DNA of 64,000 bases from Dillenia suffruticosa (Eukaryota > Streptophyta > Magnoliopsida > Dilleniales > Dilleniaceae): NCBI GenBank assembly GCA_033439265.1, contig JAVTVX010000030.1, positions 3,598,501-3,662,500 of the forward strand, written 5' to 3'. The notes below the pieces were generated by a model. That model ran no database searches, was not told the origin of the DNA, and saw nothing but the letters and a program-made list of their open reading frames with translations. A program made the position numbers and the translations under genes. Below, one piece after another: positions 1-49,184 of the stretch (positions are counted from its first letter, which is position 1; every line of letters starts with the position of its first letter).

Positions 1-760
1 ACAACAGCTCGAGCTCAATCGAAGTCATCTTGAGGAGAAGCGAAGACAAATTGAGCAAATCAAAGGACTCTATTCAAGTGATGTGCGCAATTCTAGTCAT
101 TCTAGTGGCCAACATCCGACAATTGACGGGTTAAGGTTTTTCTGGAGAAAGGCTTATATGACCCTCTTGGCTGTACTCATTTTTGGATTTGGTGTTATCA
201 TGCTAGTCTCTTGCCTTAGAATCTTGTGTCATGACTCATCACCGACTGCCCAGGACAACAATCCCCCACCAAGCAAAATTGCCCCCTAATTGATGGCTAA
301 TAGCTTTCTGGGTCTTTTATTTTTGTAGCGTTGGTAATTAAAATAGAGCGAGAAATTTGGATTTTGAATGTTGAAGTTTCACTATGAAATGGTAATGGTT
401 TCCATCTTTTCTGTAATTTAAGTGGTTCCAATGAAGTAAACAATTTTTTAGGAAGAGAAAAGTATCAACTTATGGCATTGGATGTATCCAAACCTGATAG
501 CACCTTGTTTAGGGCTAGATCTGGGATTGGGTGGCCACCAAATGCTCACCACATGAAACAAGTACTCCTCCTTGACCAGTTAGGGACCCATTCCAATAAT
601 GCACCACGGTGCAGAACCAGTATGCAGCTCTGCATTCATGCATGTGGAGAAAGACTTTGATATGTTTATGTCAGTGTGCATGTGTGTGTGTGTGTGTTTT
701 TTTTTTTTTTTGTACGTGTGACGCACATGTGTGAGAGAGATATTCTGTAACAACAAATAG
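1..760 (+). repeat. Tandem duplication, left copy
   Basis: Matches 2420-3170: end of the membrane-protein gene, the 3' flank (GGCATTGGATGTATCCAAACC and so on) and a TG-rich tract. The copies differ by scattered bases and small gaps. The left end is off the window. Confidence 0.85.
2..289 (+). CDS. Membrane-protein family copy A1, 3' part only
   Basis: Open frame from the window edge to a TAA stop; the 5' part lies outside. The visible 95 residues begin in the charged linker (QQLEL, then EEKRRQIEQIKG), pass a Ser/His-rich stretch (NSSHSSGQH), and end in one strong membrane segment (AYMTLLAVLIFGFGVIMLVSC) followed by a short Cys-containing tail and PPPSKIAP. It is nearly identical to the C-terminal half of the gene at 2143, and the 3' flank is shared to about position 760, so the two are tandem duplicates about 2.4 kb apart. 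Its tail is 12 residues longer than that of its neighbour, which carries a TAG where this copy has CAG. The function is unknown to me. I infer a membrane protein with a single C-terminal span plus more spans upstream, by analogy with the complete copies. Confidence 0.8.
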   Translation, partial: QQLELNRSHLEEKRRQIEQIKGLYSSDVRNSSHSSGQHPTIDGLRFFWRKAYMTLLAVLIFGFGVIMLVSCLRILCHDSSPTAQDNNPPPSKIAP

Positions 761-2105
761 TTGACCTAGTATGATCTAGTATGATGGGTATTAGTTCTCT
801 TAAACTTCAATTTGTCAACTTGCACTCACTTCCTGCACTTATGCATGTAGCATAAGTGAATGAAGACGAGGTGTTTTGTTGTTGTTGCGCCAGTATTGAA
901 TCATCAATTCAAAACTATATTTAGTTCACTCCAACTCTAATTTTTTCTGTAAAGAAAAGTAATTAAAGTATCAATAATTGTAAAAAAGTTAAAATGATTA
1001 CAAAATTTTAGCTTCTTGAAATTGCTTGAGCATCCAATGAATTAGTCCTCGAATTTCCACAAAAAAAGGTAATCAAAAGTGAAAAGTCAATTAGCCAATA
1101 AGTTTTGGCTCAAGTGTTACATTTCCCCCTCCCCATGTAATAGAATCAAAATCAATTATCATAAAAATGTGCAATAATGTGGAAATATTATGTAACGATA
1201 CCCATAACATTCTCCAAATGTCTACATGCAAGATATTACGTACATAGAAGTTTAGCTTTCCATGATGTTTGAGTTTTCCTAGTTTTAACACTTTTTTTTG
1301 GGGGGGGGGGAATGCAAAAAAGCAAAAAAATTAGGTTATAAATTAAAAGCATAAAAAGAAATAGCAAAAGTCTCTATCATGTATTATTTTGTATTCGTCT
1401 AAAGTTCAAAAATACAAGGTTTAGATTGTACCGCATGTCATCTCTCGTTCAACATACCATACATTCACATTTCCTTCCTCGTTTACATCCTAAAGATAAA
1501 AAATCGAGGGGCCCAAAAAAGTTAACTTGATATTTCATGTGATTGATCGTATTTTGACAGATTATAAATTAGAGGGTCGGAATAGATTAAATAAGTTTAG
1601 AACTAAATAAATTGATTTTTTTTTTAAAGTTCATATCGATAAATTTTAATTCTTCTTGTTACTTGATTTTATATGTTTTTTTGTTGCTAATTTAAAAATT
1701 ATTCAAATTTAAAATATTTTAATTTTTATCAATTTTTCAAATAAATGCTAAACGCCCTCATGACCATTTGAATTGAGAGAAGCAAGGAAAATTGATGAAT
1801 GGTTTATCTCATACGCATAACAATTCTTCGTAAAACATCGCCTTGCCCGTCGATATAAGATTGACTATTAACTTTTATAAGGTTATCCTATTTTCTAAGC
1901 CTTTAGAAAGTAAACAAAATTTTCTATTTTTCATGTCCACACACCAAGAGATATGTTTTAGCACTCCAGAAATAACCCAGAAATTGTTGTACAAACTCCC
2001 AAGTCTTCGCAGTCAGCAGCCCATATCCTGAGAGAGAGAAAGAGAGAGATAGAGAGAGGCATAATCCTTAAATACACAAGACTTTGCACTCGACAACCCC
2101 GATTA

Positions 2106-2109
<4 letters not shown>
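761..2109. other. Gene-free spacer
   Basis: AT-rich with poly-T and a G-run (1301-1311). Nothing coding recognised. A leader for copy A2 must lie in its last 100-200 bases, where GAGAGA tracts begin (2031-2057). Confidence 0.6.

Positions 2110-2142
<33 letters not shown>
2110..2142 (+). repeat. GA microsatellite touching the ATG of copy A2
   Basis: 33 bases of GA immediately followed by ATG. It would form the 3' end of the leader; GA tracts are also binding sites of plant BPC (GAGA) factors. Confidence 0.9.
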
Positions 2143-2146
<4 letters not shown>

Positions 2147-2685
2147 GGCGTGATACTCAACCAATAAATTTAGCTCAACTAGAGAAAGAAAAAGCGGAGC
2201 TAGATGCAATAAACGAGAAACAAGAAAAGAGAGTGAACGAATCAGAGAAGAAAATCATAAAGCTAGCTAACTTCTACGTAGTCTTCCAAGGAGTGATTCT
2301 CACAGCACTCTCACAAGCTCAGAAGCTCCGATGCAACGACTGGTGGATCCCATTCTCTCTCTCCTTGGCCGCCTCCGTCACCAACTTCATTGCCTTATGT
2401 CACTCTATACCCAAGTACCTAAAAACACGACAGCAGCTCGAGCTCATTCGAAGTGATCTTGAGGAGAAGCGAAGATCAATTGAGCACATCAAAGGATCGA
2501 TCTCTTCAAGTTATGCGCACAATTCTAGTCATTCTAGTGGCCAACATCAGAGGATTGACATGGTAAGGTTTTTCTGGAGAAAGGCTTATATGACTCTCTT
2601 GGCTGTGCTTATTTTTGGATTTGGTGTTGTCATGCTAGTCTCTTGCCGTAGAATCTTGTGTCATGACTCATCACCGACTGCCTAG
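2143..2685 (+). CDS. Membrane-protein family copy A2 (180 aa, function unknown)
   Basis: Complete intronless frame. The ATG follows directly on a 33-base GA tract. Residues 10-40 are highly charged and predicted coiled coil, with the family motif EKQEKRV near 25-31. Segment 1 (about 41-60) contains FQG. The motif WWIPF is at 67-71 and opens segment 2 (to about 90). A charged linker (95-120) and a Ser/His stretch follow, and a last membrane segment (about 147-168) ends in SC with another Cys at 173. This layout recurs in five other genes of the window. No known domain is recognised. The linker and N-terminus could pair as coiled coils, perhaps for self-assembly, but that is inference. Compared with the copy at 2-289, a CAG to TAG change shortens the tail by 12 residues. 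The rest of the frame is clean, so I treat the gene as functional. Confidence 0.85.
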
Positions 2686-3170
2686 GACAACAATCCCCCA
2701 CCAAGCAAAATTGCTCCCTAATTGATGGTTTATAGCTCTCTGGGTCTTTTATTTGTGTAGTGTAGGTAATTAAAATTGAGCCAGAAATTTGGATTTTGAA
2801 TGTTGAAGTTTCACTATGAAATGGTAATGGTTTCCATCTTTTCTGTAATTTAAGTAGTTCCAAGGAAGTAAGCAATTTTTTAGGAAGACAAAAGTATCGA
2901 CTTATGGCATTGGATGTATCCAAACCAGATAGCTCCTTGTTTAGGGCTAGATATGGGATTGGGTGGCCAAATGCTCACCACATGAAACATGTACCTCTCA
3001 TTGACCAAATAGGGACCCATTCCAATAATGCACCACGGTGCAAAACCAGTATACAGCTCTGCATTCATGCATGTGGAGAAAGACTTTGAAATGTTTTTGT
3101 GCGTGTTGTGTGTGTGTGTGTGTTTTTATTTTTTTTATGCGTGTCGTGTTCGTGTGAGAGAGATATTCGC
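2420..3170 (+). repeat. Tandem duplication, right copy
   Basis: Counterpart of 1-760. The shared 3' flank contains a short open frame in both copies (472-660 and 2904-3089); its agreement comes from the duplication and is not evidence of coding. Confidence 0.85.
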
Positions 3171-3392
3171 TAACAATGAATGGTTGATCTAGTAGGAGGA
3201 GAAATTAAGTTTGTAAATCAAATTTTAGATTAGACACTTAAAAATAAAAAAAAAAAACATGATACAAAAATCATCTTTAAATAGGAATCCTCGTACGCTC
3301 GAATCAGATTAATCATAATATAATTTTAGATATCAATTACGGTAAAAATAAAAAAAAAATGGAGATCCTATCATTTGGATTCCAACTGCTTA

Positions 3393-4263
3393 CACTACAA
3401 AAAAAACAGGGTTTTTACGACGAAATTTAACGACAAATTTTTTTTGTTACTATTTCGTGACAAATTTAACTACGAAAACTTTTTTCATCGCTATTTGCAA
3501 CAAAATTTGCAATAAAAAAATAGTCGTAACTAATTTAGTGACGACTGGAAATTCGTCACTAATTTTGCGACGAATTCCGAATTCGTTGCTAATTTTGCGA
3601 TGAATTCCGAAATTCGTCGCTAAATTTAAAAAATAATTAAATTAAATAAAATATTAATATATATTTATTAAATAGTAAATTAATTTAGCGACAAATTTTG
3701 AAATTCGTTGCAAAATTTTGCGACGAATTTGAATTTGTTGCAAATTTAGCGACGAATTTCGGAATTCATCGCTAATTTTACGACGAATTTCAGAATTCGT
3801 CGCTAAATTTGAAAAATAATTTAATAAAATAAAATATTAATATATATTTATTAAATAATAAATTAATTTAGCGACGAATTCAATTGGTCGTAAAATTAGC
3901 AACGAATTTCGAAATTCGTCGCTAAATTTGAAAACATTAAATTAAATAAAATAAAATATTAATTTATTGCTAAATTTAATGACGGATTTAGTGACGAATT
4001 TATATCTGTCGCTAATTTAGCGAGCAATTTTTTTCGTTCCTAAATTAGCGATGGATAATTTTTCATCGCTAAATTTGCGACGGATTTAGCGAAAAAAAAT
4101 TATCCGTCACTAAATTTAGCGACGAATTTTTAATTTTTATCGCTAAAGTTTTGCGACACGTTATTAGCGATGAAAAATTTTTCGTCGCTAACGTTTTTAA
4201 CGACGAATTTTTATTAAATTTTCTTCATTAAATTTGTGACTAAAAGATTGTTTTTTTGTAGTG
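3393..4263. mobile_element. Non-autonomous CACTA (En/Spm-like) element, 871 bp, complete ends
   Basis: Starts CACTACAAAAAAAAC and ends GTTTTTTTGTAGTG, a terminal inverted repeat of about 13 bases, flanked on both sides by TTA (3390-3392 and 4264-4266), the 3-base target duplication typical of CACTA elements. There is no coding capacity. The interior is a patchwork of short palindromic units built on TTAGCGACGAATT and its complement, with two to three longer AT-rich tandem units (near 3613, 3799 and 3918). It could fold into extended hairpins. Such sub-terminal arrays are normally transposase binding sites. Confidence 0.85.
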
Positions 4264-4266
4264 TTA

Positions 4267-6724: not shown

Positions 6725-6728
<4 letters not shown>
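4267..6728. other. Gene-free AT-rich spacer
   Basis: Contains dispersed repeat copy 1, poly-A/T tracts and an AAGAAATGAAGG direct repeat (5432 and 5519). No coding pattern recognised. Confidence 0.55.
5205..5375 (+). repeat. Short dispersed repeat, copy 1 (SINE-like)
   Basis: Order of blocks: CGGTATTCAGATTTTATC, GATTAATCCGGTTCGAG, CCCATTTTAGAGGTTGG, CTCGAATTCGAAATCTCTG, GATTAAGGGATAGGGTGTC. The same blocks in the same order and orientation recur near 10.2, 16.7, 35.6 and 55.4 kb. Confidence 0.55.

Positions 6729-6788
<60 letters not shown>
6729..6788 (+). repeat. GA microsatellite touching the ATG of copy A3
   Basis: 60 bases of AG immediately followed by ATG, the same arrangement as in copy A2 although the coding regions have diverged. 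Confidence 0.9.
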
Positions 6789-6793
<5 letters not shown>

Positions 6794-7364
6794 TAGAAAT
6801 CAAGCTGATCGTGATCTAGAAAGGAATCAAGATGTATCCAAGCTGGAGAAAGAGAGGGACAAACTAGAAGAGAAATGTGAGAAACAAGAAAAGAGAGTAC
6901 AACAATTCCAAGCCATGATCATACAATTGTCCAACTTCTACATAGTGTTCCAAGGAGTAATTCTCACAGTGGTCTCCCAAGCCCAAACCCTAACGTGCGA
7001 AGACTGGTGGATCCCTTTCCTTCTTTCCCTTACCGGCACCATCGTCAGCTTCGCTGCCCTTGGCCACGCTATCATCAAGTACTTGAAAACCAGGAGACAC
7101 TACGAGGGATATCGGAACGACATACAGGAAAAAACGAGGAGAATTGAAGAAGACGCTCACCTGACTGGCAAACCAAGTGCCCCAGAACCTAGTGGGAAAA
7201 TAGATGAGTATAGGTTTTTTTGGAGGGCCTTTTTCTTGGTACTCATGGCCGTCTTTATTCTTGGTTTTGGTGTTGTTATAATGATTGCTTGTAGAACAGT
7301 CTTGTGTAGATCAAAATGTAATGCCGATAACTCATGCAACAAGTCTGGATCTGAGTCCCCATAG
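6789..7364 (+). CDS. Membrane-protein family copy A3 (191 aa, function unknown)
   Basis: Complete intronless frame whose ATG abuts a 60-base GA tract. It has the same order of parts as the copy at 2143: a long charged helix (residues 8-47, with EKQEKRV at 31-37), segment 1 with FQG (about 50-66), DWWIPF at 72-77 opening segment 2 (to about 96), a charged linker with KTRR and EKTRRIEED, then FFWRAFF and a last membrane segment (about 146-168). The tail is longer and Cys-rich (Cys at 168, 173, 177 and 183), which suggests lipidation or disulfides; that is inference. It is clearly more distant from the tandem pair than they are from each other, so it is an older duplicate. A TATA-like stretch (attatatatc) lies about 55 bases before the GA tract. 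Confidence 0.85.
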
Positions 7365-10300: not shown

Positions 10301-11903
10301 GGTTTTCCCAATATAATTTTTTCATTCTTAAATTTTAAACTTGAGACTTGATTAAGAAATATAACACTCTTTCCACTAGACTGATTATCTATTGGTGAAT
10401 TACTTTTCTTATTAACAATATGACACAATTGGAAAAATGGTGGTCAAGTTTGATAAGTCAAAACCCTAAGCCATGTAAGAAAATCCGAAATAATACTCAA
10501 ATTGAATTAGTTAGATAAGTTAAACGTAGCAAAATATCAAAAAATTAAAAATTAAAAATAAAAGTCGACCACAAAGAAGGGACTAAAGTGTTTAAATAAC
10601 CCTACGACCTTAAGCAAACAAAATAGGAAAGAAACTATTAAAGAAATAGCAAAAATAAAAATAAATCCGTTGCCATCTCGAATGTCTGTATATGTGAGAC
10701 TTGCGCTGCAGCAGTTTGCCCATCAACACCGCAACACCATTTTGCTGATGAGACCCCTTTCTCTTCTGCTTGGTTGCGTGCCCGTTTTCCTTATTGTTTA
10801 AACCCTCCTCTTTTGTTGACAATACGATGATATGATGGGTCAAATTAGATAATATTTTTGAATAATTAATTTATAAATTATTGTATATGCTGAATGGATG
10901 ATGTATATTGGTAGAATAGCATCCGAGATTTTATCTTTATAAAATTAACTTTTTTCTTTAAAAAAAAAATTGAGTATTAACACTCGCAGCCTTGCACCGA
11001 TTAATTAAGCCACGAAGAGGACTAGAAATTTTGAAATTTGAGAATGAAAAACCGATGCATGTAATAAATGGTCTCCGATAGATTTGTTTGGAATTATAGC
11101 TCAACTCGAATCATTTTCTTTTTTAAAAGTATTTTGAATTTGAATTTTTTTATATATAAAAAAAGATTATAAATTTAAAGGAACAATGAAAAAATATAAA
11201 TATGTTATTAATAACACATTTTTTATTTAGTATAAGAATATTAAATTCTTTTAACCAAATTCTCAAATTTAAGTATTGATAATAGAAAAATAGGTATCGG
11301 AGATCTTGCCAATAGATCTTATGGTTAAATCAAATCGGATAAATCAGAATTAATAAATTGATTATCAGATATAAGTTTGTCAAATAAAAACAAAAGATAT
11401 TTAATAGTATTCAAAATGTCAAAGAGCTGCAAGGGGCCAATTGACAAGTTGGAAAAAGCTGAGCTCGTTGGGACATTTCTCGTCTGCATCATCTTCACTT
11501 TCACGAGTTAGAGATTGCATGGTATAAATTTTATATAAGGGTTCAAACTAATTTAGATCAAATGATCATATGCTTGATTTGAAATCCTTGCATATAATAA
11601 AGGTATTGGATTCAAGATTTACTACATATATATTTACATGCATATGTACACATACACAAAACCTGTTTAGTGTAAATAATAAGGATCGAATGATGCATTT
11701 TGTTCCACAAAGGTTTGGATGAAAAACATAATTTGTCTAAGCTAATTGACACTATTATGCATATTATTATTGGCCAATAGGCTATAATCTTCGTGATTTA
11801 AGTGAGAACATTGGTAGTTCTTTACACAGATACATCCTTTAACAAACTAGATCAAAGCTCATTTACAACAATTTTTGAGATAATACACATTGTATCGATT
11901 AAA
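7365..11903. other. Gene-free AT-rich spacer
   Basis: After the 3' end of copy A3 there is a CT tract (7470-7488) and long AT-rich DNA with dispersed repeat copy 2. A less AT-rich island at 7840-8260 and another at 10660-10800 have no frame I can support. The 11400-11530 stretch reads IDKLEKAELVGTFLVCIIFT on the + strand, a membrane-like string, but with no start or continuation. Confidence 0.5.
10205..10385 (+). repeat. Short dispersed repeat, copy 2
   Basis: ATTGGTATTTAAAATTATAT, GACTAATTCGGTTCGAG, GAGCCCTATTTGAGGAGTGG, GAGACTTGATTAAGAAATAT, and a CCACTAGACTG end. Confidence 0.55.
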
Positions 11904-13350
11904 CGACAAGGGTTTTTATTCGCACAGTAGTTCACAAGCAGTACACGTCTCCTAATTTAGAGGTCGATGGTGCTCGAATCAGCCATTGGGATGATGTTAT
12001 CGCAGAGTAAGGCATAACAAGCATAAAGCATGATCACTGCAAATGCGAGCAAAACACCTGAAATGAAGTAAATGTAAGTGTATCGCTCAAACCATATCTT
12101 GGCCAAGTTGACCTCGTCCTGGCCTGCTCCACATAAAATGTGCCTAGTGAATTGGTACTCCAGGCAGTTCAAATCCTGTTTGGCGCGCATACTGACAAAT
12201 TGATTGATGACATGACACAGAGATATTCCAAAAATTAGAGAAATAAGAAGTGAGAGCATAAAGGGCATCCACCAGTGAATGAGTTTCCCCAAAGTGGAAT
12301 AAGAGATGGCATTGAGAAGGATGAGTTGAAATGCTAAGTAAGCAATGGTGACATAGGTTCCCTTCTTCTGAATGGCATTGACACGCTTTTCCAATAGATT
12401 GTTTATAACAGTGAACGCCTGATATAAAGTTCCAAGGTACTCTGCCATGGTAGCTTGTTCCTCTTTCTCGTGTGTAGGGCTGTGCCAAAACATAATGAAT
12501 CAAAGGAGGTAATAATTGAATTATATACAATTAAATAAAAGACAAATAGAGGAAGCTAAGATAAGACTAAATTCATTGTCACCACGGTAACAGCTATATT
12601 TAAGATAAGACTAAATTCATGGTCAGCTGAATTTAATTGCTCGATTCAGATTTGAAAGCCCAGAATACCTTCACTAAAAGAACAATAAGCGCCAAGCTAA
12701 AGTGCTGCAAGTATTCTCCATGCAAAGCACATCATTTTACAAACTTCAAAATACCTTGTGGCTTATCAATACCTGTGTTCTGTACGCTTGGTGAATAGCC
12801 TATCCCTATCTATTCCACATAAGGTACTAACTAACAAGATTATAATGCATCATCCATCTTACAGCCTTTTTTATTTACTCAATTGGTATCTGCCAATTCG
12901 TTTTTGTTTGGTTTTTAAGAATTCTATGCTTCAAATAAGTAAGCACCCCCAACCAAAGTAAACCCTAAATTTGAAGTAGGTGAAGCTGATCATCCGACCT
13001 TTATAATAAGTTTCTGCTCCTATCCTCAAACCCTGACCCAACAATATGTCCGCATCCAACAAGCATATCACAGTCGCTCCAAAAGTATTATGTGAAATTT
13101 CTTGGCCCCGTTGAGGTAAAGATCTCCATAGAATGCAGTGAGTTACTCAAAAGTTTCTTCCAAGACTCCTCCCCCACCCCACCCCCAAAATAAAAATGTT
13201 CTCTTTATTAGTAGAAGGTTTGAAAAGTCATTTAAGAGATGTTTATCCCTCAGGGTGTATATTATAATATCTCCACATAACCTTAGACTACAATTAGCTC
13301 CAAGTTGATGGATAATACTATATGCAACAGCTATAACTCACTCAAAATGC
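11904..13350. repeat. Segmental duplication S1, left copy
   Basis: Matches 48636-50080 in the same orientation: gene, its 5' flank and about 0.9 kb of intron. The match stops at GCAACAGCTATAAC. Confidence 0.8.
11957..12448 (-). CDS. Membrane-protein family copy B1 (163 aa)
   Basis: Complete intronless frame on the - strand. I chose the ATG at 12448 because it sits in ACCATGG and because the near-identical copy at 48693-49184 has a stop just upstream in the same frame; here the frame stays open to an upstream ATG at 12493 (15 extra residues). Features in order: short N-terminal helix with LEKRV (19-23), segment 1 with FQ at 40-41, WWMPF at 59-63 opening segment 2 (to about 85), linker with MRAKQDLN, a loop around GAGQDEV, segment 3 (about 123-148) ending in LYACYALLC, and a short tail DSSTIDL. 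It is distant from the A copies, but the motifs and their spacing match. The function is unknown. A likely 5' untranslated exon lies near 14361-14418. Its protein differs from the 48.7 kb copy at about 25 of 163 residues. Confidence 0.8.
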   Translation of the reverse strand: MAEYLGTLYQAFTVINNLLEKRVNAIQKKGTYVTIAYLAFQLILLNAISYSTLGKLIHWWMPFMLSLLISLIFGISLCHVINQFVSMRAKQDLNCLEYQFTRHILCGAGQDEVNLAKIWFERYTYIYFISGVLLAFAVIMLYACYALLCDNIIPMADSSTIDL

Positions 13351-14453: not shown

Positions 14454-14539
14454 GGTCCAAACTTGAAGGATGTCGACACACTTGGTAGGCAATTACTTCC
14501 CTCTGATTATATAATAATTTTTTAGCTTTCGTGTTTTGG

Positions 14540-15199: not shown

Positions 15200-15200
<1 letters not shown>

Positions 15201-15270
<70 letters not shown>
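15201..15270. repeat. AAT microsatellite
   Basis: About 23 units of TAA in perfect phase. Confidence 0.95.
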
Positions 15271-17559: not shown

Positions 17560-17995
17560 CTTATGGTGCTAGGTTTTAAGGGTCAAGTAGCTTTAGAGAG
17601 TTTATGCATTGCCTTAAGATCACCGGTTCGGCTTTTTGGAGAGGGTTGTTACGAGTTCAGGAGACTCTTGCTGGGGACATAAGATGGTAGTTAGGAAGTG
17701 GTTCAGATATCAAATTCTGGACGGATAGATGGGTAGAGGTAGAACCTCTGAACCAATGGTTACAAATGGATCAACCGGGAAAGTCACTGCATATAAGGGT
17801 TAGTCAATTTATTACTTTTGATCAGCAATGGGACTTTCCTCAGCTAGAGGAGTTACTCCCAAGGGTGATTGTGGAGGAGGTTAGAGTTATCATGATTCTC
17901 CGAAACCCAAAATCTCGTGTTATAGTTTGCTGGTCAGGTAATTCATCTAGTACATTCTCTGTTTGGTCTGCTTACCACTTGGCAGTGAATAATTC
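17560..17995 (+). mobile_element. LINE fragment, C-terminal part of the RT polyprotein
   Basis: On the + strand, reading through WFRYQILDGWVEV-like text (KFWTDRW type motif near 17710), then WLQMDQPGKSL, FDQQWDFPQLEELLPRVIVE and FSVWSAYHLAVNN. This order (trp-rich W..G, LLP..I, FSVxSAYHLA) is the segment after reverse transcriptase in plant L1-type LINEs. It is a fragment only, with no 5' part and no poly(A). It ends abruptly at 17995, where copia-type sequence begins. Confidence 0.65.
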
Positions 17996-30780: not shown

Positions 30781-30787
30781 GTGCTTG

Positions 30788-31297
30788 CTATCCATCCACC
30801 CTACAGGGAATGGAGAAACATGCATACAGCATCACAGCTGAGGCAACCACCACACAGACCATGATGAAGATCGAGAATAACTCCCCGTACCACACTGCTT
30901 GATAATCTCTGTTCAGTTCTGGTTGAACACCTTCTCGATCACCCAAGTTCTCTTGCCCTTCTAGAATCTCAGAAATCCTTCGTCCAACAAACTCATACTC
31001 CACATGGATCATTTTAAGTTGGTATCTGGCCTTCGCATGTTGATTGAGGACAAATGGGAGGATCAATATGTGAAAAAGAGAGTTCAAGAGGGAAATCCCA
31101 AATGGCACCCACCAGATTCCACAAGTGAGAGCTGTCGATCGGGTGATGGAAAAGAAAATCAAGCTCTGGAAGATCAGGAAGAATGAAACGTGACGATAAG
31201 TTCTTTCAAACTGCGCATGGACTCGCTTTTGCTGCTTGTCAATTAATGACGTTAACTCTTGTTGCTGCTCCCTAAGCTGGTCAATCACTCTCACCAT
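30788..31297 (-). CDS. Membrane-protein family copy C (169 aa), most divergent
   Basis: Complete frame on the - strand. The ATG is at 31297, with no better upstream start in frame. Order of parts: N-terminal charged helix rich in Gln with DKQQKRV (20-26), segment 1 with FQ at 43-44, WWVPF at 62-66 opening segment 2 (to about 85), linker with HAKARYQLK and a YEFVGRRISEILEGQ helix, an acidic loop, and segment 3 (about 140-160) ending in VMLYACFSIPC. KQxKRV, FQ, WWxPF and the final xMLxAC place it with the other copies although the rest has diverged. The stop lies about 18 bases before a strong splice donor (CATCTG then GTAAGG at about 30769), so the transcript may have an intron in its 3' untranslated part. 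A likely 5' exon is at 35060. The function is unknown to me. Confidence 0.75.
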   Translation of the reverse strand: MVRVIDQLREQQQELTSLIDKQQKRVHAQFERTYRHVSFFLIFQSLIFFSITRSTALTCGIWWVPFGISLLNSLFHILILPFVLNQHAKARYQLKMIHVEYEFVGRRISEILEGQENLGDREGVQPELNRDYQAVWYGELFSIFIMVCVVVASAVMLYACFSIPCRVDG

Positions 31298-32659: not shown

Positions 32660-32961
32660 TGAGTAAAACAAGTTCTTAGTATATGTATCAAGATTCCATG
32701 AATGATACCACTATTGACAGTGAGTAAAACAAGTTCTTACTATACATATCAAAAATCTATAAATAATACCACTTCTGACAGTGAGTAAAACAAGTTCTTA
32801 TTAGTATATATCAAGATCCCACAAACAATACCACTACTGACAATGAGTAAAATAAGTTCTTAGTTTATATCAAGACCCCACGAACAATACCACTACTGAC
32901 AATGAGTAAAACAAGTTCTTAGTATATATATCAAGACTCTGCGAATGATACCACTACTGAA
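32660..32961. repeat. 60-base minisatellite, five units
   Basis: Units of 58-61 bases each starting TGAGTAAAACAAGTTCTTA and ending ATACCACTACTGACA. The units differ from each other by about 10-20 percent. In the probable 5' intron of the 30.8 kb gene. Confidence 0.9.
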
Positions 32962-33757: not shown

Positions 33758-33824
33758 TCCTCAGTAGCTCAGTGGTAAGAGTGGTCCGCTTGATTGGTCC
33801 TAGGTTCAAATCCTATTTGGGGAG
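33758..33824 (+). pseudogene. trnN-GUU: Plastid trnN-GUU pseudogene
   Basis: TCCTCAGTAGCTCAGTGGT start and a matching acceptor stem TTTGGGGAG end. The anticodon arm has lost about six bases, including the GUU anticodon, and an extra A follows GTGGT. It cannot be a working tRNA. Confidence 0.85.
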
Positions 33825-35720: not shown

Positions 35721-35984
35721 AGTATTCGTTGATCAAAGAAGGTATAATAAAATGAAGAAAATCAAGCTTCAGGTTCAACCTCCAACATTACTATATATAC
35801 TGAATTTACGGTAGAAGATAATACAAAAGTATTGTCCCACGTTAGCATTTCCAAACTTTTTATGGATGGAAATTCAATCTCTATTGAGGCCTCCTCAGGG
35901 TCAAAATTGGAGTTTAAGTACAAATACTGTTTACGGAATATCTTATTTTTCTTTTGGTTACAGGGATGGGGCGGAAAGCTAACC

Positions 35985-38742
35985 TCTAAAGGAAGCTAAG
36001 TGAACTGGTACAAATACCTCTCCAAAGGACATCCCTTATCCAAAATACAAAGAAAACATCTCGATGTACGACTACAAAGAAGGAACTGATCTTGCCGAAG
36101 AAATTTTTTCCTTAAAACCTCACACCAAAGAGCTGGATCTCCTAAGATTAATTTCCAACCTAGTTTTGCCAAGAGTGTTTAATTCATATCACGGAAGCTC
36201 CGAATACCCAAACCTCCATGCTCCTTTGGTTGAAAAACCAAACCCCATATAATAGCATGAGGTCTACGATTATCCTCTGATCCTCCCCATAGAAATTGTC
36301 TCTGAATTCGGTCAAGGTAAGCACATATATGCTGAGGAAGCCATGTTGTTTGCATAAAAAAAGCAGGAATGGTAGAATTGACAGTTTGATTAAGTGTTCA
36401 TCGCCCGACAGTTCTCGGTGTATTGGCTTTCCAACCGGCCATCTTGTTTTGAATCCTCTCAATCAAGTAATGGTAATGCTCTCTCCAAAGTCTACCATGA
36501 ATAATAGGAGCTCCAAGATAAACCCCCAAGTCCTCCATAAGAAGAAATTGACATCTCGAAGCCAAACAGCTCTTCAGAGCTAACGGAGCTGGGAAATAAA
36601 CAGGTTGGATTTCCTTGGATTGATCATTAGACCACTCATATCACCGAACTCCCGCAAACAATCCAGAATTGTGTCCATCATCTCTGGCTTTGCATCCGCG
36701 AATAACATAAGGTCATCTAAAGGTCCAAGGATTCAACATCCACCACCATTGCAGTAAGTCCACTGTCCTGGCCAACTGAGCAACCACGTGCATTTCCTTG
36801 TTTGTTTTCCTCTTACGAAGACAGGAGCTGACCTCCCTTCTCCATATGCTGATTCCTCGCCGGTGATAAACCTCACTCCCCTGGGATACTGGTTGGCATT
36901 TTCCTAACTGACGTGTCGGAGTTCCCCGCAACACCTAGCCCTGTTGTTTTTTTGTCAGAAGACCATGAGTGGGGAAGCTTCTTCCAGGATGTACGAATGG
37001 AGTTCCATCGAAACCCCTCTTCCCCCATCACTGGTCGACGAGGGAGAGTCCAATTGCATAGGAGCTTCCAAGGCAGTGCCGTCCTGGCCCAGAACAGGGG
37101 AAGAATCAAGGTCCTCCGTGAGCAAAATCTCACTCGCACCTGCGATAGAAAGCCGTTGTGAGGAGTCTGGTCGGCGGGAAGACAACCTCCGTCCTTCTAA
37201 GTTACGATGAGCAAAAGGATACCCAGAGGCTTCGTCACAGAGACGCCCTTTGTTGGAGAAGCAGCAGCCGCGGGTTCTACTTCTTGACCTGGCCGGGTCA
37301 AGCTATCAGTCAAGCGGGGCGCACTAATGGTTCTTAGAGCCGGATCGGACATCTCATGAGCTGAACCTATTGAAATTGTGGACTTCGGATTGGAAAATTA
37401 AGTGGGACTGGGCCACTTGCACTCCTGGGCGGCCTCCGGCCCATATCTCTCCAATGATCTAGCTGTGCTTGCTTCTTTTGAAGATCCGGTCCAGCATTCT
37501 GAGTTCCTTGGTGTTTCCCGCCCCTGAAGGTCAACCGAAGAAATCTCTCCACAATTTCCGCCGGAATCTTCAACTCCCTTAATCACAACAGACCTCACCA
37601 TCCGTGATTTCCGCGAGTTGATTGAAGCGGTCACGCAATTTCTCCCCGGCCGGAATCTCAACTCCGGCCACTCTAGAGCCTCTCCTTCTCGGGCGCCTCT
37701 GAACTTGCATCCAAGGCCCGAAGCCTTCTGGCACCAGTGAACCAGCAGAAGTTTGAGCAATAGAAGACTTCTGAGGGAGATTCCGAGTGCCCTCATTACT
37801 CCTATTAGCCAAAGCATCCTCCATACCTTTCCGACATTACTCTTTCACATGGCCAACATGTCCACATTCAAAACACATCACATGCAAACCCTCGTATTTC
37901 ACACTTTGTACCCGTTTTCTGATGCGAACTTTCGGAACCAGGGGTTTCAAGAGATCCAATTCTACATAGATGCATGCATACTTGCCATGCAAAGCCATGG
38001 CTGTGTTCACATCGATTTTTAGAGGTCGACCCAATTCCTTCCCTACTCGATACAAAATATCCTCATCGAATTATTCGATCGGCAACCCGGGCAAGAGGAT
38101 GCACACAGCAGTTCTTCTAATTGCTTTCTCCGAAGGAACGAAATCAGGTCGCCATTTCATTACGACAGAATAATGGTCCTGGATCACCCATGGACCCTCA
38201 GTGAGAGCCCTGCAATAATCGTGCTGGGAAGAGAGCTTAGCTAGATAGAACCATCCCCCATGTCATAAGTCAAGTTCCCCTTCTATTCTCCACAGCACCA
38301 GAATCTTTGAGCGAAGAAATTGGTAGCCAATAGACTTTCCCCACAATTTAACTATCACAGATCGCTTACATCGGCGTCGAAGCAGACGCATCTGCTCATC
38401 AGAAACTGGAATTGCAGGGATTGTGGCATCATCACAGTCTTCCTCCATTCCTTCCTCCTCATCCTCTTCACCCTCAAGTTCATCCTCAGAGTCCGACGGC
38501 AGCAAGCCTTCTGTCATAACCGGCGTCGGGTCTCGACCGAGAAGAGCGTGGCTTTGAAACTCCGTTGGAAGGCCGGCCGCTCCTCCCCATCATTCCCTTT
38601 TGTCTTTTTGAAGCTTCTCTGAAATTGGCTTTCGTCTTCTGTTGTACGCGGGCGGTCTTCGTCGTCATCACCAGAAACAAGAGTAGTTGAATTAGGGGGA
38701 CCGTGGGTCCCTGTGAGTGACATGTTTTGTCTTTTCTCTTAA

Positions 38743-38795
<53 letters not shown>

Positions 38796-38830
38796 ACACA
38801 CAGAATGCAAGTATGCTGATCGACCATGTT
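35985..38830 (-). mobile_element. L1-type LINE, internally deleted
   Basis: On the - strand, ORF1 starts at 38723 (MSLTGTHGPPNSTT) and continues in shifted frames: an acidic stretch, then the DUF4283-type part (QMRLLRRRCKRSVIVKLWGK, ending in LPGLPIE then a stop), GRPLKIDVNTAMALHGKYAC, VKYEGLHVMCFECGHVGHVK (a zf-CCHC_4 knuckle followed by a stop), and FGPWMQVQRRPRRRG. At about 36720 it passes straight into the reverse-transcriptase core LDDLMLFADAKPEMMD, then MAGWKANT-like text and LWCEVLRK. The endonuclease and the first part of RT are missing. Several stops and frameshifts make it inactive. A CT tract (38742-38790) lies at its 5' end. Confidence 0.8.
38742..38790. repeat. CT microsatellite at the LINE 5' end
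   Basis: About 49 bases of CT just upstream (on the - strand) of the LINE ORF1 start. Confidence 0.9.
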
Positions 38831-43129: not shown

Positions 43130-45339
43130 CTGCGAAAAATGGTTAAAAAAATATAGAAATTACTTATAGTTAACATAACTATGAATGCAATTGTTGTATA
43201 ATTTCATTGTAAGATTGAAAAAGAAGACATGAAGATACCATCATGATAAAGAATTGGAACAGGAAATTGCTAAGCAAAAAAAAAAAGGAACAAAAAAAAA
43301 GAAAAGAAAAAAAAAGTTGATACCTCCACATTGTCAAGTCTGCATTTTAGGAAACTTGAAGATTAACCACAACAAGGCCTAATCAATTATTGCATGGAGT
43401 GTTTTGAGGAAGATGTTGCTTACAGGATAAAAGAGTATGCATGAAGTAAAGAAGTGCATCTAGACTCAGTGTTGAGTGATTATACACTTCCAACTAAAAT
43501 AAAAGGGATATTTTACACACAAAAAAAAAGCCATAACTTATTCAATAATCTATCTGGGATTAATGGAGGCCACATCCCAACAATATATAACAAAATTGAA
43601 GTGCACCTGCAATAAAGAAAGGGAGAAAGGGAACAATCCCTAGCTCTCAAAAACCCTAATTGGCAAAAGATATCAACATATACAAAGGTAAATGTGAAAA
43701 GAAGAGAATTCTAAGATGGATGAGTATGGTCACAAGCAGATATAAAAAGTTGACAGGAAATGAATACATCAAAAAAAAAAAAAAGGTGCACAAGAAATGG
43801 AGAGGGGGGGAAAGGTGGTTTGATCAAGTAGGGAGAAACTCTTAATGCCCTAATACAAAAAACAATGTTGTCCAAGGTGGTTCTAGAACTACCCCAGCAC
43901 TTTGAAGGGCCTCAAGTGAGGTGCCCTAAGAAAGACACTTGCATTTTGCCCCTCTACACTAAGGCACCAGGTGAGCAGGTGAGCACTTTCTACTTTGGGT
44001 CTAAGTATGTCACCTTTTCATTTTTTTTTTTTTCTTCTTCTTCTTTTTCTTTGTTTCCCTTTTTTAATCCAAGAGAATTTTACATTGTCGTGATACTTTG
44101 GCTTGGCCAACTACTCTTTTTATACTATAGGCTACTTCTAGCTACCATAGCGGCCCTTCCACTTTAATGTACTTATAGTTTGTATGGGTACTGAATAAAT
44201 ATGTCAAACAAAAGAGAATTACTAGCACATGGGAAGAGAGGCCGAATGGCAAGGCAAGGCCATACACTTGTTTGGCTATCTATCTCCCCCATGACTTTTC
44301 TTCATGTTTCTTGAGTCTCCACTTTCTTTTGTTGCAAGCTTGAGATTTAGGTAGATTGAGATATATAACATGAAAATTTTTTCAAAGTACATTTGTTAAT
44401 GTTCAGGGGAGAAAGTAAGACATGAGAAAAAGAAATGTCTCCCACCTACCCAAGTTGTGGACAAAGAAAAATCACAAAGTATTTAGATCAAGACCTACAA
44501 GGAAGAGATCCAGAATACCAAGTGAGGAATCCAATGAATATACATACATATATACACACACACAAAAGAGCGCACAGCACAAACAACAACAACAACAACA
44601 ACGACGAACTGAGGCTTAATCCCAAATAGAGAGAGAGAGAGAGAGAGAGAGTAGGTGGGAAAAGAGGGGATCTCGGAAGGAAAACCCTACAAAGAACCCC
44701 CTCATAATATTTAATGTTGCGCAGCTATAACTCAAAACGCTTCCATGTACTCAACAATTATTGTTGTGGAAGGCGATATTAAGGGCTGCGCTTGAGAGAG
44801 AAATTAATTTGCGTTAATGTTATTACTTCCACGAAATGGAGACATGTTGTCACATGTTTTACTAATGGTATTGCCTATATGATGAGATATAACATTTTCT
44901 ATTAAATGAATTGTGGATATCTTTGTTTTTGAGAACCTTAACTATATTCACTTTGGACAACTAAGTATTCTTAAAGAAGCACTTCAATTCACTCAGGCAA
45001 GCGCCTATCATGAAATGAGCACCTTTGGGCAATAGAGGTTCCTAACACTTAATGGCACAGTCTTTGACATACTAAACAGAAACACCAACATACACATTGA
45101 AGGCGCTCTAAAAACAATGCCAGGGTAAAACACAAAATGTTAAGACTCTTAAATTGAATTGCTGATCCACATCACATCCCCCTTAGAGTAAAAGGCTCAG
45201 AGAGATGGCAAAAAATTAAGAGCTCTAAACTAAACATTACGTAAAAGGGTCAGAGATACCAGGGTCTCTAGAATCCATAGAAAGAATAGTAAGATTTCTT
45301 TTCCCGGAAAATAATTAAAACCATAGCTGGAAGGATTAG

Positions 45340-45610
45340 GTTCCTCATTGCCATGCAACAGCTTGAACTCCTCTAAGGCCACAACTCAAAGCAGAATGTA
45401 CACACCCTTTGAAGGCACCCAAGTTGCATGAAGCCAAGAGTAAAGATGACTCCCATAAACGAATTGGTCATGAACAATGGAGAAACAAATGGTCAACATC
45501 CTCTAGCTCCCTAATACACAGAAGGCACCGGTATACAAAAGTGATACCCCTTTTTTGAAGACTTTTTTTTGGTTTAAGATTCTTCTCTTAGTTGATTCCC
45601 AAGCAAGAAG
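45340..45610 (-). mobile_element. LINE scrap (zf-RVT end) in the RF2-like 5' intron
   Basis: Read on the - strand: LRELEDVDHLFLHCS followed after a stop by PIRLWESSLLLASCNLGAFK. The VDHLFLHC block is the Cys/His end of plant L1-type RT polyproteins. It was present before the local duplication, since the same scrap is at about 50995-51235. Confidence 0.55.
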
Positions 45611-46372
45611 AAGTCACCTTTTTTGTTTGACTGGGAGTGAGGTAGAGGTTTTCCAAATTGATTTCTATCCTTCCGTGTCCATCATTACGTCTGTCAGAAC
45701 TTCATATAGTTTCTTTCATTTTAATTAGTACAGAAAACCTATACTTACGCTTTATGCAAGCCACATTATCTATCCTTGCTAGCAGAGATAAATATATTTT
45801 ATAAAGACCCAATATTTACCCTCTATGTGACTAAGAAACAAAGTATGCACAAAAACAGCAATCAACTATAAAACTTCAGTCACACAGCAAATGAGATGGG
45901 TAGTAAGATTAAATATCTGGGTGCAATTCTATGGAATTAAAAATGAAAAAAAGAAAAAGAAAAAAGAAAGGAAGCAAACGGGAAGTTATAAATTCAACAT
46001 AAACTCAAAAAAACAACCAAGTAATGTGTATTTTGTATACAATGCATTTTATATTTCTTAAAACCATTTGGGTCACTATAAAACATTAATTTCATACGGC
46101 CGAACAGAAATTTCTCCGTTCAATAAACAATCTTAGGCCAATATAGAAAAGAAAAACAGAGAAATTATTTATGGCAAGTGATTTAACATGACAAACAAAT
46201 AAACACAAAGCAAACAAAGATGAGAGGAAGAACCAGTAGAACAATATTGCCCATTAATGCGCATTACTATCTCCAGTTCAAAGTTCAAATTCCTTTAATT
46301 TCCAGCAAAGATTAAACTCTATACGTAAAATCGAACCAAATTAACAAAAACTAGAAATTCAATTTCACATAC

Positions 46373-46665
46373 CTAAAACAGATCTGAGAATTAAGATCAA
46401 ACTGGGAAAGAATTCTGGTCTAGATTCAGCAATTCGAAACCCTGGCTTGAGGGGGAGAGAGGGACAGCACAGAGAGAGAGAGAGAGAAAGATGCACAGAG
46501 TGACTGTCTTATCTGAGAGGAATACGAGAAGCCACGACCGATGCCTGACGGGGGAAGCGTGGGAGAGGCTAGGTTTTTGAGAACTTTGTCCGGAGCGATC
46601 GATTGGGCAAATGCAAATTTGATCGGATTGTTCCGACCATTAAAAAAATAAATAAATAAATAGAG
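46373..46665 (-). promoter_or_regulatory. Likely promoter and 5' untranslated exon of the RF2-like gene
   Basis: On the - strand, a TATA-like CTATTTATTTATTTA run is followed by a leader with a CT tract and by a donor TTTTAG then GTATGTGAAAT (exon end at 46373). The next acceptor-bounded coding exon on this strand is at 43129. Joining them leaves an in-frame stop in the leader, so the leader would be untranslated and the first usable ATG would be that of MSSFTG. The assignment is inference; the same segment exists again at 52.05-52.34 kb. Confidence 0.45.
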
Positions 46666-46744
46666 GAAAAACGAGGTCGGTTTGGACCTTAATATTCCCA
46701 TCCGTTTAATCCGAACCGGGCCGGTGGTTGTGGTCGATGACGGG

Positions 46745-47016
46745 TCGGATGTTACCTGACATTAGTTGCACATTTCAAATGCAACGGTCAAGTGTAACTA
46801 TCTGAAATAACTGAAATAGTTAAACTAAATTATAAAACTACAAGATTGATTAGCATAGTTAAGTTGGTTGAATAACCAATCCACAAGGAAATGAGATTTG
46901 TGATATTTTTCTTTTCTTTCTCTGTTTCTCTCTCCCTCTGTTTCTAATTCTTTTCTCCCCCTAACCCCTCTCTCTTCTTCTCTCCTTCTCCACTGCTTTC
47001 TCTCTCTTAATACATT
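46745..47016 (+). repeat. Partial copy of the compact element's LTR
   Basis: Matches the first about 270 bases of the LTRs at 52412 and 53650. It begins after the same flank (GACGGGTCGGA) as the 52.4 kb LTR and then jumps to sequence like that at 54360-54405. So it is the duplicated counterpart with the rest of the element lost, not an independent insertion. Confidence 0.6.
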
Positions 47017-47070
47017 AAATTGATTAATATTTATATAAAAAAATTTTAAATTTTATATGTTAAATTAAAC

Positions 47071-47760
47071 TTATACCTAATGTTAAAAGCAATTCAATTT
47101 TTTTTTTTTTTACACTGAGATTTGAACTTGAGAATATCGGGGTAGAAAAGAGAAATTGTGACCACTAAACTGTTTCTTGGAGACTACAAGCAATTCAATT
47201 TACAACCAAATTTATACAACTAGATACAAAATGTTGGCATAGTTTTTCTAAATTCAAAGAGTTTGGACTCCGAGTGACATGTGGTTAACAGCATGATCTA
47301 ATGTGCAAAAAATGGAAAGTTTGAAAACTTGGTTGGTTGTATAGTTATGGGACTGATTTTACCAAGTGCAGCATGCACCTCACCCAAGAAACTTGTGATA
47401 CTTTCTGCTGGCATATGGAGACAGTGACCTGCTGAAGATTTTCCGAGCATCTAAGCAGTATTTTATTTATTTTATTTTATCTATTTTTTATCTTGCCTTA
47501 TGTTTCACGGGGGCCAGGTAATAGTAGGCCTTTGGAAATTTAAGGGACGAAATATTTTAGACGAAGTCTACTCTCAAGGATCCACTTGCTTTGATGAGGT
47601 ATCCATGAATTCTTTCAGAGTTCCAACGAATTGTAAAAAATTCTGAAATTTCACATTCTAATTGGAACCTAAATTTTTTCGTATTGTTTTATTGTGCAGC
47701 ACTGAGGACCTGAAAGCATCTGGAAAAGCTGCTGGGGCCTTTCATCTTTTGAGTACAATA
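47071..47760 (+). pseudogene. Broken copy of the ABIL1-type gene (intron 1 piece fused to exon 6-7)
   Basis: Positions about 47188-47560 match ABIL1 intron 1 at 59659-60036 closely. At 47561 the sequence jumps to the end of exon 6 (KSTLKDPLALM, exon end 47598), then a 101-base intron with GT and AG, then the next exon from 47700 (TEDLKASGKAAGAFHLL). So about 3.9 kb between intron 1 and exon 6 is missing in this copy, with only a few shared bases (AGA) at the join. No start, and exons 1-5 are absent, so it cannot encode an ABIL protein. It usefully shows what the next exon of the intact gene beyond the window should look like. A SINE sits at its left end. Confidence 0.8.
47087..47201 (-). mobile_element. 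Short tRNA-like SINE with 14-base target duplication
   Basis: An 87-base insert (47101-47187) is flanked by two copies of AAGCAATTCAATTT (47087-47100 and 47188-47201). On the - strand it starts GTAGTCTCCAAG, carries a box-A-like CAGTTTAGTGGTC and a box-B-like CAAGTTCAAATCTC, and ends in poly(A). The ABIL1 intron at 59659-59672 has the same site once and without the insert, which is an empty site. It is very short for a plant SINE, so it may be 5' truncated. Confidence 0.75.
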
Positions 47761-48635
47761 CCACGTTGTATATTCTTGTGCTGTATATGGGTGTTGCAAC
47801 TTCCATGGATCATATTATTACTATCTAGTGCCTTAAAATTGTTCACCTGTTGATGTGGAGGAGAGTGCAAGGACAAAAGCCTCTGCAGGCCAAGCTCAGG
47901 TGCCAAGTGGAAGTCCTGTATCCAGTGCAATTATGCAAAATTTTGGGGTCTCATGGAGGGTAATGTCCAAATCAACAAAAAGACAAAAATGCCCATCCTT
48001 CTTTTGATTTCTGTGATTTTGTTTTTATTTTTTTGGAGGTTTCCTCTCTGCTTTGTTAGTTTCTTACCCCTTTTTGCTTGCACTTTCATCACTTTTCTTC
48101 CACTGAAGGGCTTTTCAACAATGAGATAAATTTATTTCAAACTGCTTGCTGAACCGTTGCTGTCAAAATGAGGTCTTTTATGTTATTCTTCTTTCATCTC
48201 ATTCTGTGATGGTCTAGCCTGGAAATGCATTCTGATCTTTGCTTAACCAGAAAAAAAATGGAAAATTAGTGAATAGTTTTTTCCCCCTTTCTTCTGATAG
48301 TGAAGATTTAAATGCCATGGTAGTACAAGATGAGTATTAAAGAAATTGTAAAGGAAAGTTCAGAAAATCAGTGGACAAGAGTGGTAGAAATTGAAATCTT
48401 GCCAACAACTATTGGCTGATACTTCAAAATCTATAAAACAACATTCCAATGCCAGAAGTTATAACCACAAATGATCGACTGACTTATAACTACATTTATA
48501 CCTCTTGTACTTAAAATTCTGACCAAAAAAGAACCAGTACTATGTATCTCGTGTGCTGCTAGCAACAAATGATCGACTGACTTATAACTACATTTATACT
48601 AGTAACACTGTTTGTAAGAAAATTAAATGACCAAA
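47761..48635. other. Gene-free spacer with a 40-base direct repeat
   Basis: ACAAATGATCGACTGACTTA followed by TAACTACATTTATAC occurs at about 48470 and 48563. The remainder is not recognised. Confidence 0.55.
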
Positions 48636-48692
48636 AATGACAAGGGTTTTTATTCACACATAGTAGTTCACAAGCAGGACACATATCCTAAT

Positions 48693-49184
48693 TTAGAGGT
48701 CGATGGCGCTCGAATCAGCCACTGGGATGATGATATCGCAGACTAAGGCATAACAAGCATAAAGCATGATCACTGCAAATGCGAGCAAAACACTTGAAAT
48801 GAAGTAAATGTAAGTGTATCGCTCAAACCATATCTTGGCCAAGTTGACCTCGTCCTGGCCTGCTCCACGTAAAATGCGCCTAGTGAATTGGTACTTCAGG
48901 AGGTTCAAATCCTGTTTGGCGCGCATACTGACGAACTGATTGATGACATCACTGAGATATATTCCAAAAATTAGAGAAATAAGAAGGGAGAGCATAAAGG
49001 GCAACCACCAGTTAATGGGTTTCACTGAAGTGGAATGAGAGATGGAATTGAGAAGGATGAGTTGAAAGGCTAAGTAAGCAATGGTGATATAGGTTCCCTT
49101 CTTCACAATGGCATTGACACGCTTTCCCAGCCGATTGTTTATATCAGTGAACTCCTGATATAAAGTTCCAAGGTACTCTGCCAT
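48693..49184 (-). CDS. Membrane-protein family copy B2 (163 aa)
   Basis: Complete intronless frame on the - strand, ATG in ACCATGG. It has the same length and layout as the gene at 11957-12448: helix with GKRV, FQ at 40-41, WWLPF at 59-63, linker MRAKQDLN, GAGQDEV, segment 3 ending in LYACYALVC, tail DSSAIDL. A clean acceptor (TTATGTTTTAG before CACAGCCC) lies about 30 bases before the ATG, and the likely first exon is at 52048-52340. Most differences from the 12 kb copy change an amino acid and fall in the N-terminal helix, the loop before WW, and the region after segment 2, while segment 3 is almost unchanged. The gene sits at the left of a chimeric duplicated block (see 48636-52700). The frame is intact in spite of the rearrangement, which suggests it is still used. 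Confidence 0.8.
   Translation of the reverse strand: MAEYLGTLYQEFTDINNRLGKRVNAIVKKGTYITIAYLAFQLILLNSISHSTSVKPINWWLPFMLSLLISLIFGIYLSDVINQFVSMRAKQDLNLLKYQFTRRILRGAGQDEVNLAKIWFERYTYIYFISSVLLAFAVIMLYACYALVCDIIIPVADSSAIDL

What the first reader, a model, noticed from the sequence alone, without database searches (positions are those of the whole stretch)
1..49184. A local family of small coiled-coil membrane proteins with no function I can name
Seen: six genes (2-289, 2143-2685, 6789-7364, 11957-12448, 30788-31297, 48693-49184) share K(Q/E)xKRV or LxKRV in an N-terminal helix, FQ in the first hydrophobic segment, WW(I/M/V/L)PF opening the second, a charged linker, and a last segment ending in (M/L)xxC. 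They are intronless in the coding part and 163-191 aa. The N-terminal and linker helices are strongly charged, so they could form coiled coils beside the membrane. Known: I recall only unnamed plant proteins of this type. Inference: an expanding plant-specific family, possibly oligomeric, perhaps in stress or membrane organisation; nothing in the window fixes the role.
Basis: partly seen in the sequence, partly recalled or inferred. Interest (0 to 1): 0.75.

Follow-up and report, generated by a model that had tools for sequence, protein, structure and literature searches.

The report
Tandem plant family of small membrane proteins
Six genes in this plant DNA belong to a large, unnamed family of small proteins that probably sit in a membrane with three helices; the same genome holds about a hundred relatives with open reading frames, mostly in clusters, and their role is not known.

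Summary
They align far above chance.

The window is part of a 596-Mb plant genome. Searching it turned a local family into a large one: 97 different open frames (4 cut short at the C-terminus), 90 of them in ten clusters, plus fragments. No family model reached a cut-off that was shown, and no solved sequence or fold matched convincingly. Plant proteomes could not be searched, so "plant-specific" is untested.

Anatomy: a charged N-terminal helix runs into TM1; after a tight turn, TM2 runs into a second charged helix; TM3 follows. TM1 carries a near-invariant polar residue. A turn cysteine and one after TM3 tend to be kept or lost together, which hints at a disulfide, though not significantly once kinship is allowed for. 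The fast-growing clade is weakly constrained (dN/dS 0.61); a distant clade is conserved (about 0.2).

Most likely role: a membrane hairpin whose stalk binds paralogue-specific cytosolic partners. Passive expansion is the main rival. SLATT membership, self-incompatibility receptor and NLR linkage gained no support.

The parts
2..289 (+). family gene 1, 3' part only (95 codons and stop); starts upstream of the window
   Evidence: complete ORF in L116
2143..2685 (+). family gene 2, 180 aa, single exon
   Evidence: GA tract directly before the ATG
2155..2268 (+). gene 2: charged N-terminal stalk helix (residues 5-42)
   Evidence: AF2 helix H5-58; periodicity peaks at 103 and at 140 degrees over 93 members
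2269..2316 (+). gene 2: TM1 (residues 43-58) with near-invariant polar residue Q49 (codon 2287-2289)
   Evidence: Q 89, H 4, E 2, L 2 of 97 members
2332..2334 (+). gene 2: Cys64 in the TM1-TM2 turn
   Evidence: a Cys in the turn in 79 of 93 members not cut short
2341..2418 (+). gene 2: WWIPF motif and TM2 (residues 67-92), Ser74 near-invariant
   Evidence: AF2 helix H68-122
2419..2508 (+). gene 2: charged linker helix (residues 93-122), no heptad periodicity found
2581..2661 (+). gene 2: TM3 (residues 147-167) with Cys168 (2644-2646) and Cys173 (2659-2661) at its end
   Evidence: dN/dS of TM3 0.37, lowest point estimate of the seven regions; Cys counts; bases read
6789..7364 (+). family gene 3, 191 aa
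11957..12448 (-). family gene 4, 163 aa (178 aa if the ATG at 12493 is used)
   Evidence: lies in a 1.44-kb block, 11901-13341, repeated at 48635-50087
30788..31297 (-). family gene 5, 169 aa
   Evidence: 88% identical relatives on C19
48693..49184 (-). family gene 6, 163 aa, 85% identical to gene 4
   Evidence: second AF2 model, same three helices

Best explanation
The genes encode small three-helix membrane proteins. SHOWN: common ancestry, single open frames, hydrophobic segments in the places of three TMs, a predicted layout of three long helices, weak purifying selection on the family as a whole with the lowest dN/dS in TM3 and the C-terminus. INFERRED: the N-terminus and the linker face the cytosol (charge bias); the continuous helices stalk-TM1 and TM2-linker form an antiparallel hairpin that reaches into the cytosol; TM3 may be stapled to the hairpin's lumenal or apoplastic turn by a disulfide between the turn Cys and the last Cys; the polar residue in TM1 and the WWxPF/Ser74 part of TM2 hold a shared membrane core together, possibly an oligomer. 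The stalk and linker, with the higher dN/dS estimates, would set which cytosolic partner, or which sister protein, each copy binds. The family would thus be a set of membrane-anchored adaptors or scaffolds with a shared core and a changeable stalk, multiplied by tandem duplication. Which pathway they serve is not shown.
For: Family and census. Single exon: an in-frame stop lies within 300 nt upstream of the chosen ATG in 94 of 95 ORFs, with a purine at -3 in 79 of 95. Helices: AF2 models of two paralogues about 28% identical both give three long helices (H5-58, H68-122, H137-176; H2-50, H56-106, H115-152), mean pLDDT 73 and 72. Topology: mean K+R 7.4 in the N-helix and 8.8 in the linker against 1.1 in the turn and 0.8 in the C-tail (the segments differ in length). 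Periodicity of the N-helix near 103 degrees. Disulfide: of 93 members not cut short, 78 of 79 with the turn Cys have the last Cys, against 6 of 14 without it; both distant pairs keep these two Cys, and one of them lacks Cys168. Selection: 36 independent pairs, dN/dS 0.61 (0.50-0.75); TM3 0.37, C-term 0.39, N-helix 0.66, linker 0.80. Polar TM1 residue Q/H/E in 95 of 97.
Against: No oligomer, localisation, expression or partner data. AF2 confidence is moderate (pTM 0.51 and 0.47), and no coordinates were available to measure the Cys-Cys distance. The Cys co-loss is not significant once kinship is allowed for (8 independent pairs, on average 3.4 concordant, 0 discordant, median p 0.125), and in the column control of the same call a non-Cys column, R111, is tied to the turn Cys as strongly (p 1.4e-5) as the single Cys173 column (p 2.8e-5), so kinship alone can give such p values. 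Six members lack the turn Cys and keep the last one, two of them in this window (genes 4 and 6). The N-helix has a non-heptad peak at 140 degrees at least as strong (z 16.7) as the heptad one (z 14.2), and both z-scores are inflated by kinship; the linker has no heptad signal. Regional confidence limits overlap in part, and amino-acid differences between sister copies are fairly even along the protein (0.12-0.22 per ten residues). Window pairs 4/6 and 1/2 have dN/dS 0.94 each, so these copies may be drifting.
Confidence: 0.37

Rival explanations
1. Passive expansion. The clusters grow by unequal crossing-over; a few copies do the ancestral job and most tandem copies are redundant and drifting, with little function of their own.
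For: dN/dS near or above 1 in a number of young pairs, 0.94 for both window pairs; about 14 broken or fragmentary copies among the fetched loci beside 4 frames cut short and further broken hits; two further relatives of the distant clade are broken (C17, C20); nonsynonymous:synonymous changes 1089:469 in the expanded clade against 46:55 in the distant clade, p 1.3e-6.
Against: Pooled dN/dS is below 1 (0.61, 0.50-0.75) with TM3 at 0.37 (0.25-0.53); motifs survive among members only 21-30% identical to gene 2; 93 frames remain that are not cut short; the gene 4/6 pair has no gap in 492 aligned coding positions against 18 gap positions in the 5' flank.
Confidence: 0.29
2. Membrane-permeabilising executor: the helix-TM-TM-helix unit works like the predicted SLATT pore-forming effectors of bacterial conflict systems, with the stalk as sensor and the TM1 polar residue lining a pore. 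Works-like only; membership is not claimed.
For: Sub-threshold SLATT_1 match of gene 2 over TM1-TM2-linker (17.8 bits, E 0.0035); at E <= 0.01 SLATT_1 in 2 and SLATT_5 in 1 of 95 members; NCBIfam SLATT_1 E 0.06 and PADLOC PycTM E 0.0056 in one of 6 members each; same order of helix, TM, short turn, TM, helix.
Against: Gene 2 scores below the SLATT_1 cut-off of 26.3 bits, and other, unrelated families score alike; the SLATT_1 model's best place in the whole genome is E 1.9 and not a family gene; the consensus shows no SLATT match up to E 1; a third conserved TM; no NB-ARC match among the 124 scored (of 349 candidates) lies in a family cluster.
Confidence: 0.12
3. Atypical ligand receptors like the self-incompatibility proteins PrpS (Papaver) or SE (Ipomoea): small lineage-specific multi-TM proteins that answer secreted cysteine-rich proteins.
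For: Similar size, several TMs, no kinase; review PMC13033167 describes PrpS as about 20 kDa with multiple predicted TMs and no homologues outside Papaveraceae (passages and abstract seen).
Against: The TM1-TM2 turn is short in 90 of 97 members (10-12 residues between two reference positions), whereas PrpS has a predicted 35-residue extracellular loop; the turn is not clearly hypervariable (dN/dS 0.77, 0.48-1.40; C-term 0.39); none of the 88 matches to the S1 ligand family PF05938 lies inside a family cluster.
Confidence: 0.06

Closest known systems
SLATT domains (Pfam PF18181 and relatives; predicted 2TM pore-forming effectors)
   Same: helix, TM, short turn, TM, helix; weak local sequence match
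   Different: score below cut-off, third conserved TM with paired Cys, tandem clusters in a plant; nucleotide-signal partners were not looked for
PrpS / SE atypical receptors of plant self-incompatibility
   Same: small, multi-TM, no kinase
   Different: short turn instead of a 35-residue loop, no S1-ligand genes in the clusters, higher dN/dS estimates in the charged parts taken to be cytosolic; no sequence comparison could be made
8xMP (PF24838) and 2TM (PF13239), Pfam membrane families
   Same: weak match across TM1-TM2-linker (gene 3 to 8xMP: E 0.029; consensus to 2TM: E 0.0042)
   Different: below cut-off (14.6 of 30 bits; 17.5 of 24.8 bits)

Membership tests
SLATT (PF18181) | sequence score at or above Pfam's cut-off (26.3 bits) | tested here: not met
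   17.8 bits for gene 2; best place genome-wide 17.1 bits, not a family gene; bits of the other members with E <= 0.01 were not shown
SLATT (PF18181) | two-TM hairpin flanked by helices | tested here: inconclusive
   the hairpin unit is predicted but with a third TM; fold searches cannot settle it
SLATT (PF18181) | genomic link to nucleotide-signalling genes | not tested
   described for prokaryotes (PMC7159879 passages); not searched for in this genome
PrpS/SE-type atypical receptors | small protein with several TMs | tested here: met
   163-191 aa in the window, three hydrophobic segments, TM1 the weakest
PrpS/SE-type atypical receptors | linkage to the secreted ligand gene (S1 family PF05938 for PrpS) | tested here: not met
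   0 of 88 PF05938 matches in the family clusters
PrpS/SE-type atypical receptors | long extracellular loop (35 residues predicted in PrpS1) | tested here: not met
   short turn in 90 of 97 members
PrpS/SE-type atypical receptors | sequence homology to PrpS or SE | not testable with these tools
   no plant protein collection at hand
8xMP (PF24838) | score at or above cut-off (30 bits) | tested here: not met
   14.6 bits for gene 3

The most novel reading that the evidence does not exclude
An undescribed plant family of disulfide-stapled three-helix membrane proteins that assemble through their stalks into conducting or permeabilising oligomers (polar Q/H ring in TM1), kept as a roughly hundred-member, fast-turning-over repertoire for recognition or conflict, beside a slow-evolving ancestral clade.
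Probability: 0.1. Interest if true: 0.8.

Novelty: new variant of a known kind. Interest (0 to 1): 0.37.

Why it matters
A family of about a hundred open genes in one plant genome that matched no Pfam model convincingly (24,736 models) is a sizeable annotation gap. The slow-evolving clade (dN/dS about 0.2) gives a few genes on which function can be tested with less redundancy, and the Cys pair, the polar TM1 residue and the stalk suggest simple mutants. Large, young, clustered families are often tied to immunity or reproduction (general knowledge), but that link is not a result here.

Tried and rejected

Rows dropped: 4 members cut short left out of the Cys counts; 35 of the 36 sister pairs used (the distant-clade pair was left out); 2 exact duplicates and incomplete frames left out of the 95-member set; pairs for dN/dS were limited to dS 0.02-0.5 with each sequence used once.

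Full report
CHECK. The six genes are present as described, with one correction: the last three are on the minus strand (plus-strand translations of those stretches hold stops). Gene 1 is only the 3' part of a gene that begins before the window; its complete frame was read in the genome. tblastn inside the window links the three groups at about E 3e-8 to 3e-17 among complete genes, so the shared motifs are not chance. Genes 4 and 6 lie in a 1.44-kb block repeated at 90% identity (11901-13341 and 48635-50087), and genes 1 and 2 are a tandem pair.

SCALE. The window is G000:C30:3598501-3662500 of a 596-Mb genome in 37 contigs. Gene 2 as query gives 112 matches (150 of 154 candidates scored), gene 6 gives 102 and gene 5 gives 92, many of them shared. 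One hundred regions were fetched; a profile search of their frames and of the window's finds a family match in every one. 95 different frames of at least 145 aa, with a usable start and stop and covering most of the profile, remained after removing 2 exact duplicates; two more came from C26 and C24. Four of these 97 are cut short at the C-terminus (one search shows them; left out). Of the 97, 90 lie in ten clusters: C10 at 8.65-9.13 Mb (17), 12.61-12.69 (10), 24.58-24.59 (3) and 28.67-28.98 (20), C29 (10), C5 (10), C19 (7), C30 with the window (6), C2 (5), C37 (2); seven are single. About 14 more copies in the fetched loci are broken or fragmentary. These are lower bounds, as the tool says of large families, and a census with the more distant query P0005 did not complete.

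HISTORY. In the tree (97 rows, 63 of 94 inner branches well supported) each window group except gene 3 has its nearest kin outside the window's own cluster on C19 at 19.05-19.15 Mb; C5 pairs with C2, C29 with C37, and C10 8.7 Mb with C10 28.8 Mb. Some duplications are very young: two C19 pairs differ by no synonymous change. A distant clade of four genes (L087/L088 and L109/L110) branches far from the rest (starred branch, length 2.14); the tool warns that where it attaches may be a long-branch artefact.

SELECTION. Over 36 independent pairs the pooled dN/dS is 0.61 (0.50-0.75 by bootstrap of pairs): TM3 0.37 (0.25-0.53), C-term 0.39 (0.26-0.62), TM1 0.57 (0.36-0.94), TM2 0.58 (0.43-0.80), N-helix 0.66 (0.49-0.89), turn 0.77 (0.48-1.40), linker 0.80 (0.59-1.05). 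The distant pairs give 0.22 and 0.18. Nonsynonymous:synonymous changes are 1089:469 in the expanded pairs against 46:55 in the distant pairs, Fisher p 1.3e-6 (counts rounded, the one distant pair subtracted from the pooled total). The window pairs 1/2 and 4/6 are at 0.94 each, so for these copies constraint is not shown.

ANATOMY. Two AF2 models from window-only alignments agree on three long helices, at moderate confidence (pLDDT 73 and 72, pTM 0.51 and 0.47). Charges are concentrated in the N-helix and linker and scarce in the turn and tail, which by the positive-inside rule (general knowledge) puts the N-terminus and linker in the cytosol and the turn and C-tail outside. Hydropathy supports TM2 (80 of 97 above 1.6) and TM3 (95 of 96), less clearly TM1 (33 of 97; median 1.49), which carries a conserved Gln. 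Of ten angles tried, the N-helix peaks at 103 degrees (heptad-like, z 14.2) and at 140 degrees (not heptad, z 16.7); the linker has no peak near 103. The z-scores are inflated because the members are related. Near-invariant: Glu28 (88 of 97), Gln/His/Glu49 (95 of 97), Pro70 (88 of 97), Ser74 (94 of 96 with a residue).

CYSTEINES. Of 93 members not cut short, 79 have a Cys in the turn; 78 of these have the last Cys, against 6 of the 14 without it (Fisher p 2.5e-7). The same test for Cys168 gives p 0.016. Against the reading: in the column control the unrelated position R111 is tied to the turn Cys as strongly (p 1.4e-5) as the single Cys173 column (p 2.8e-5), and the independent-pairs test, which allows for kinship, has on average 3.4 concordant and 0 discordant of 8 and cannot reach significance (median p 0.125) (all). 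The staple between the turn Cys and Cys173 is therefore a hypothesis and not a result. Genes 4 and 6 of this window lack the turn Cys.

WHAT IT IS NOT, AS FAR AS TESTED. No family in Pfam or NCBIfam passes a shown cut-off; PADLOC and PHROGs give only weak matches. The most suggestive weak match is SLATT_1 (17.8 bits against a cut-off of 26.3), but the SLATT_1 model run over the whole genome does not pick family genes. No NB-ARC match among 124 scored of 349 candidates and none of 88 S1-ligand matches lies in a family cluster. Structure searches return long helical bundles and hairpins of many kinds without a significant match. The collections of prokaryotes, viruses, phages and plasmids gave no relative at the settings used.

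MECHANISM. I commit to a membrane hairpin, perhaps stapled, with a cytosolic, changeable stalk, acting as an adaptor or scaffold (0.37). Passive expansion with most copies redundant is the strongest rival (0.29). A pore-like executor (0.12) and an atypical receptor (0.06) are not excluded.

LITERATURE. PMC13033167: abstract, outline and passages. PMC7159879: passages. All other papers: listings only. Statements that nothing was found in print rest alone, in an open-licence library. The positive-inside rule and the habit of clustered young families in immunity and reproduction are recalled knowledge.

Noticed in passing
window 17691-20120 and 24509-27406 (+): Two decayed Copia-type retrotransposon copies (type is my reading), 77% identical over 2.1 kb; GAG-pre-integrase and retroviral SH3-like domains pass Pfam's cut-off.
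   Followed up: partly
window 36182-38070 (-): Open stretches that look like a decayed LINE (my reading); a zinc-knuckle match is below Pfam's cut-off.
   Followed up: partly
window 44441-47008 and 50083-52647: A 2.6-kb direct duplication at 90% identity in which I recognised no gene; its second copy adjoins the repeated block that holds gene 6.
   Followed up: no
window 33758-33824 (+): tRNA match by Rfam (35.5 bits) that ARAGORN did not report.
   Followed up: no
window 32660-32960: Tandem array of a 61-bp unit, 5 copies.
   Followed up: no
window 3518-4213: Stretch with several overlapping inverted self-matches, perhaps a foldback element.
   Followed up: no
window 2110-2142 and 55671-55773: GA tracts: one directly before the ATG of gene 2, one of 51.5 units elsewhere. 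A GA/CT run of at least 6 units lies within 150 nt upstream of the chosen ATG in 23 of 95 family ORFs.
   Followed up: partly
window 61825-62058 (+): Open 78-aa stretch that reminds me of a plant Abl-interactor-like exon (recalled); Pfam gives no match, and its search in the genome did not complete.
   Followed up: partly
L102-L107 on C10 (8.8 and 28.8 Mb): A subclade carries about 20 extra residues between TM1 and TM2 (6 of 97 members have 31-34 instead of 10-14 counted residues).
   Followed up: partly
G000 C19 19051808-19084450: A gene-5-type and a gene-4-type copy recur as a unit every 13.6-15 kb, three times, with nearly identical copies (the gene-4-type copy of the middle unit is a fragment): a very recent local amplification.
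   Followed up: partly
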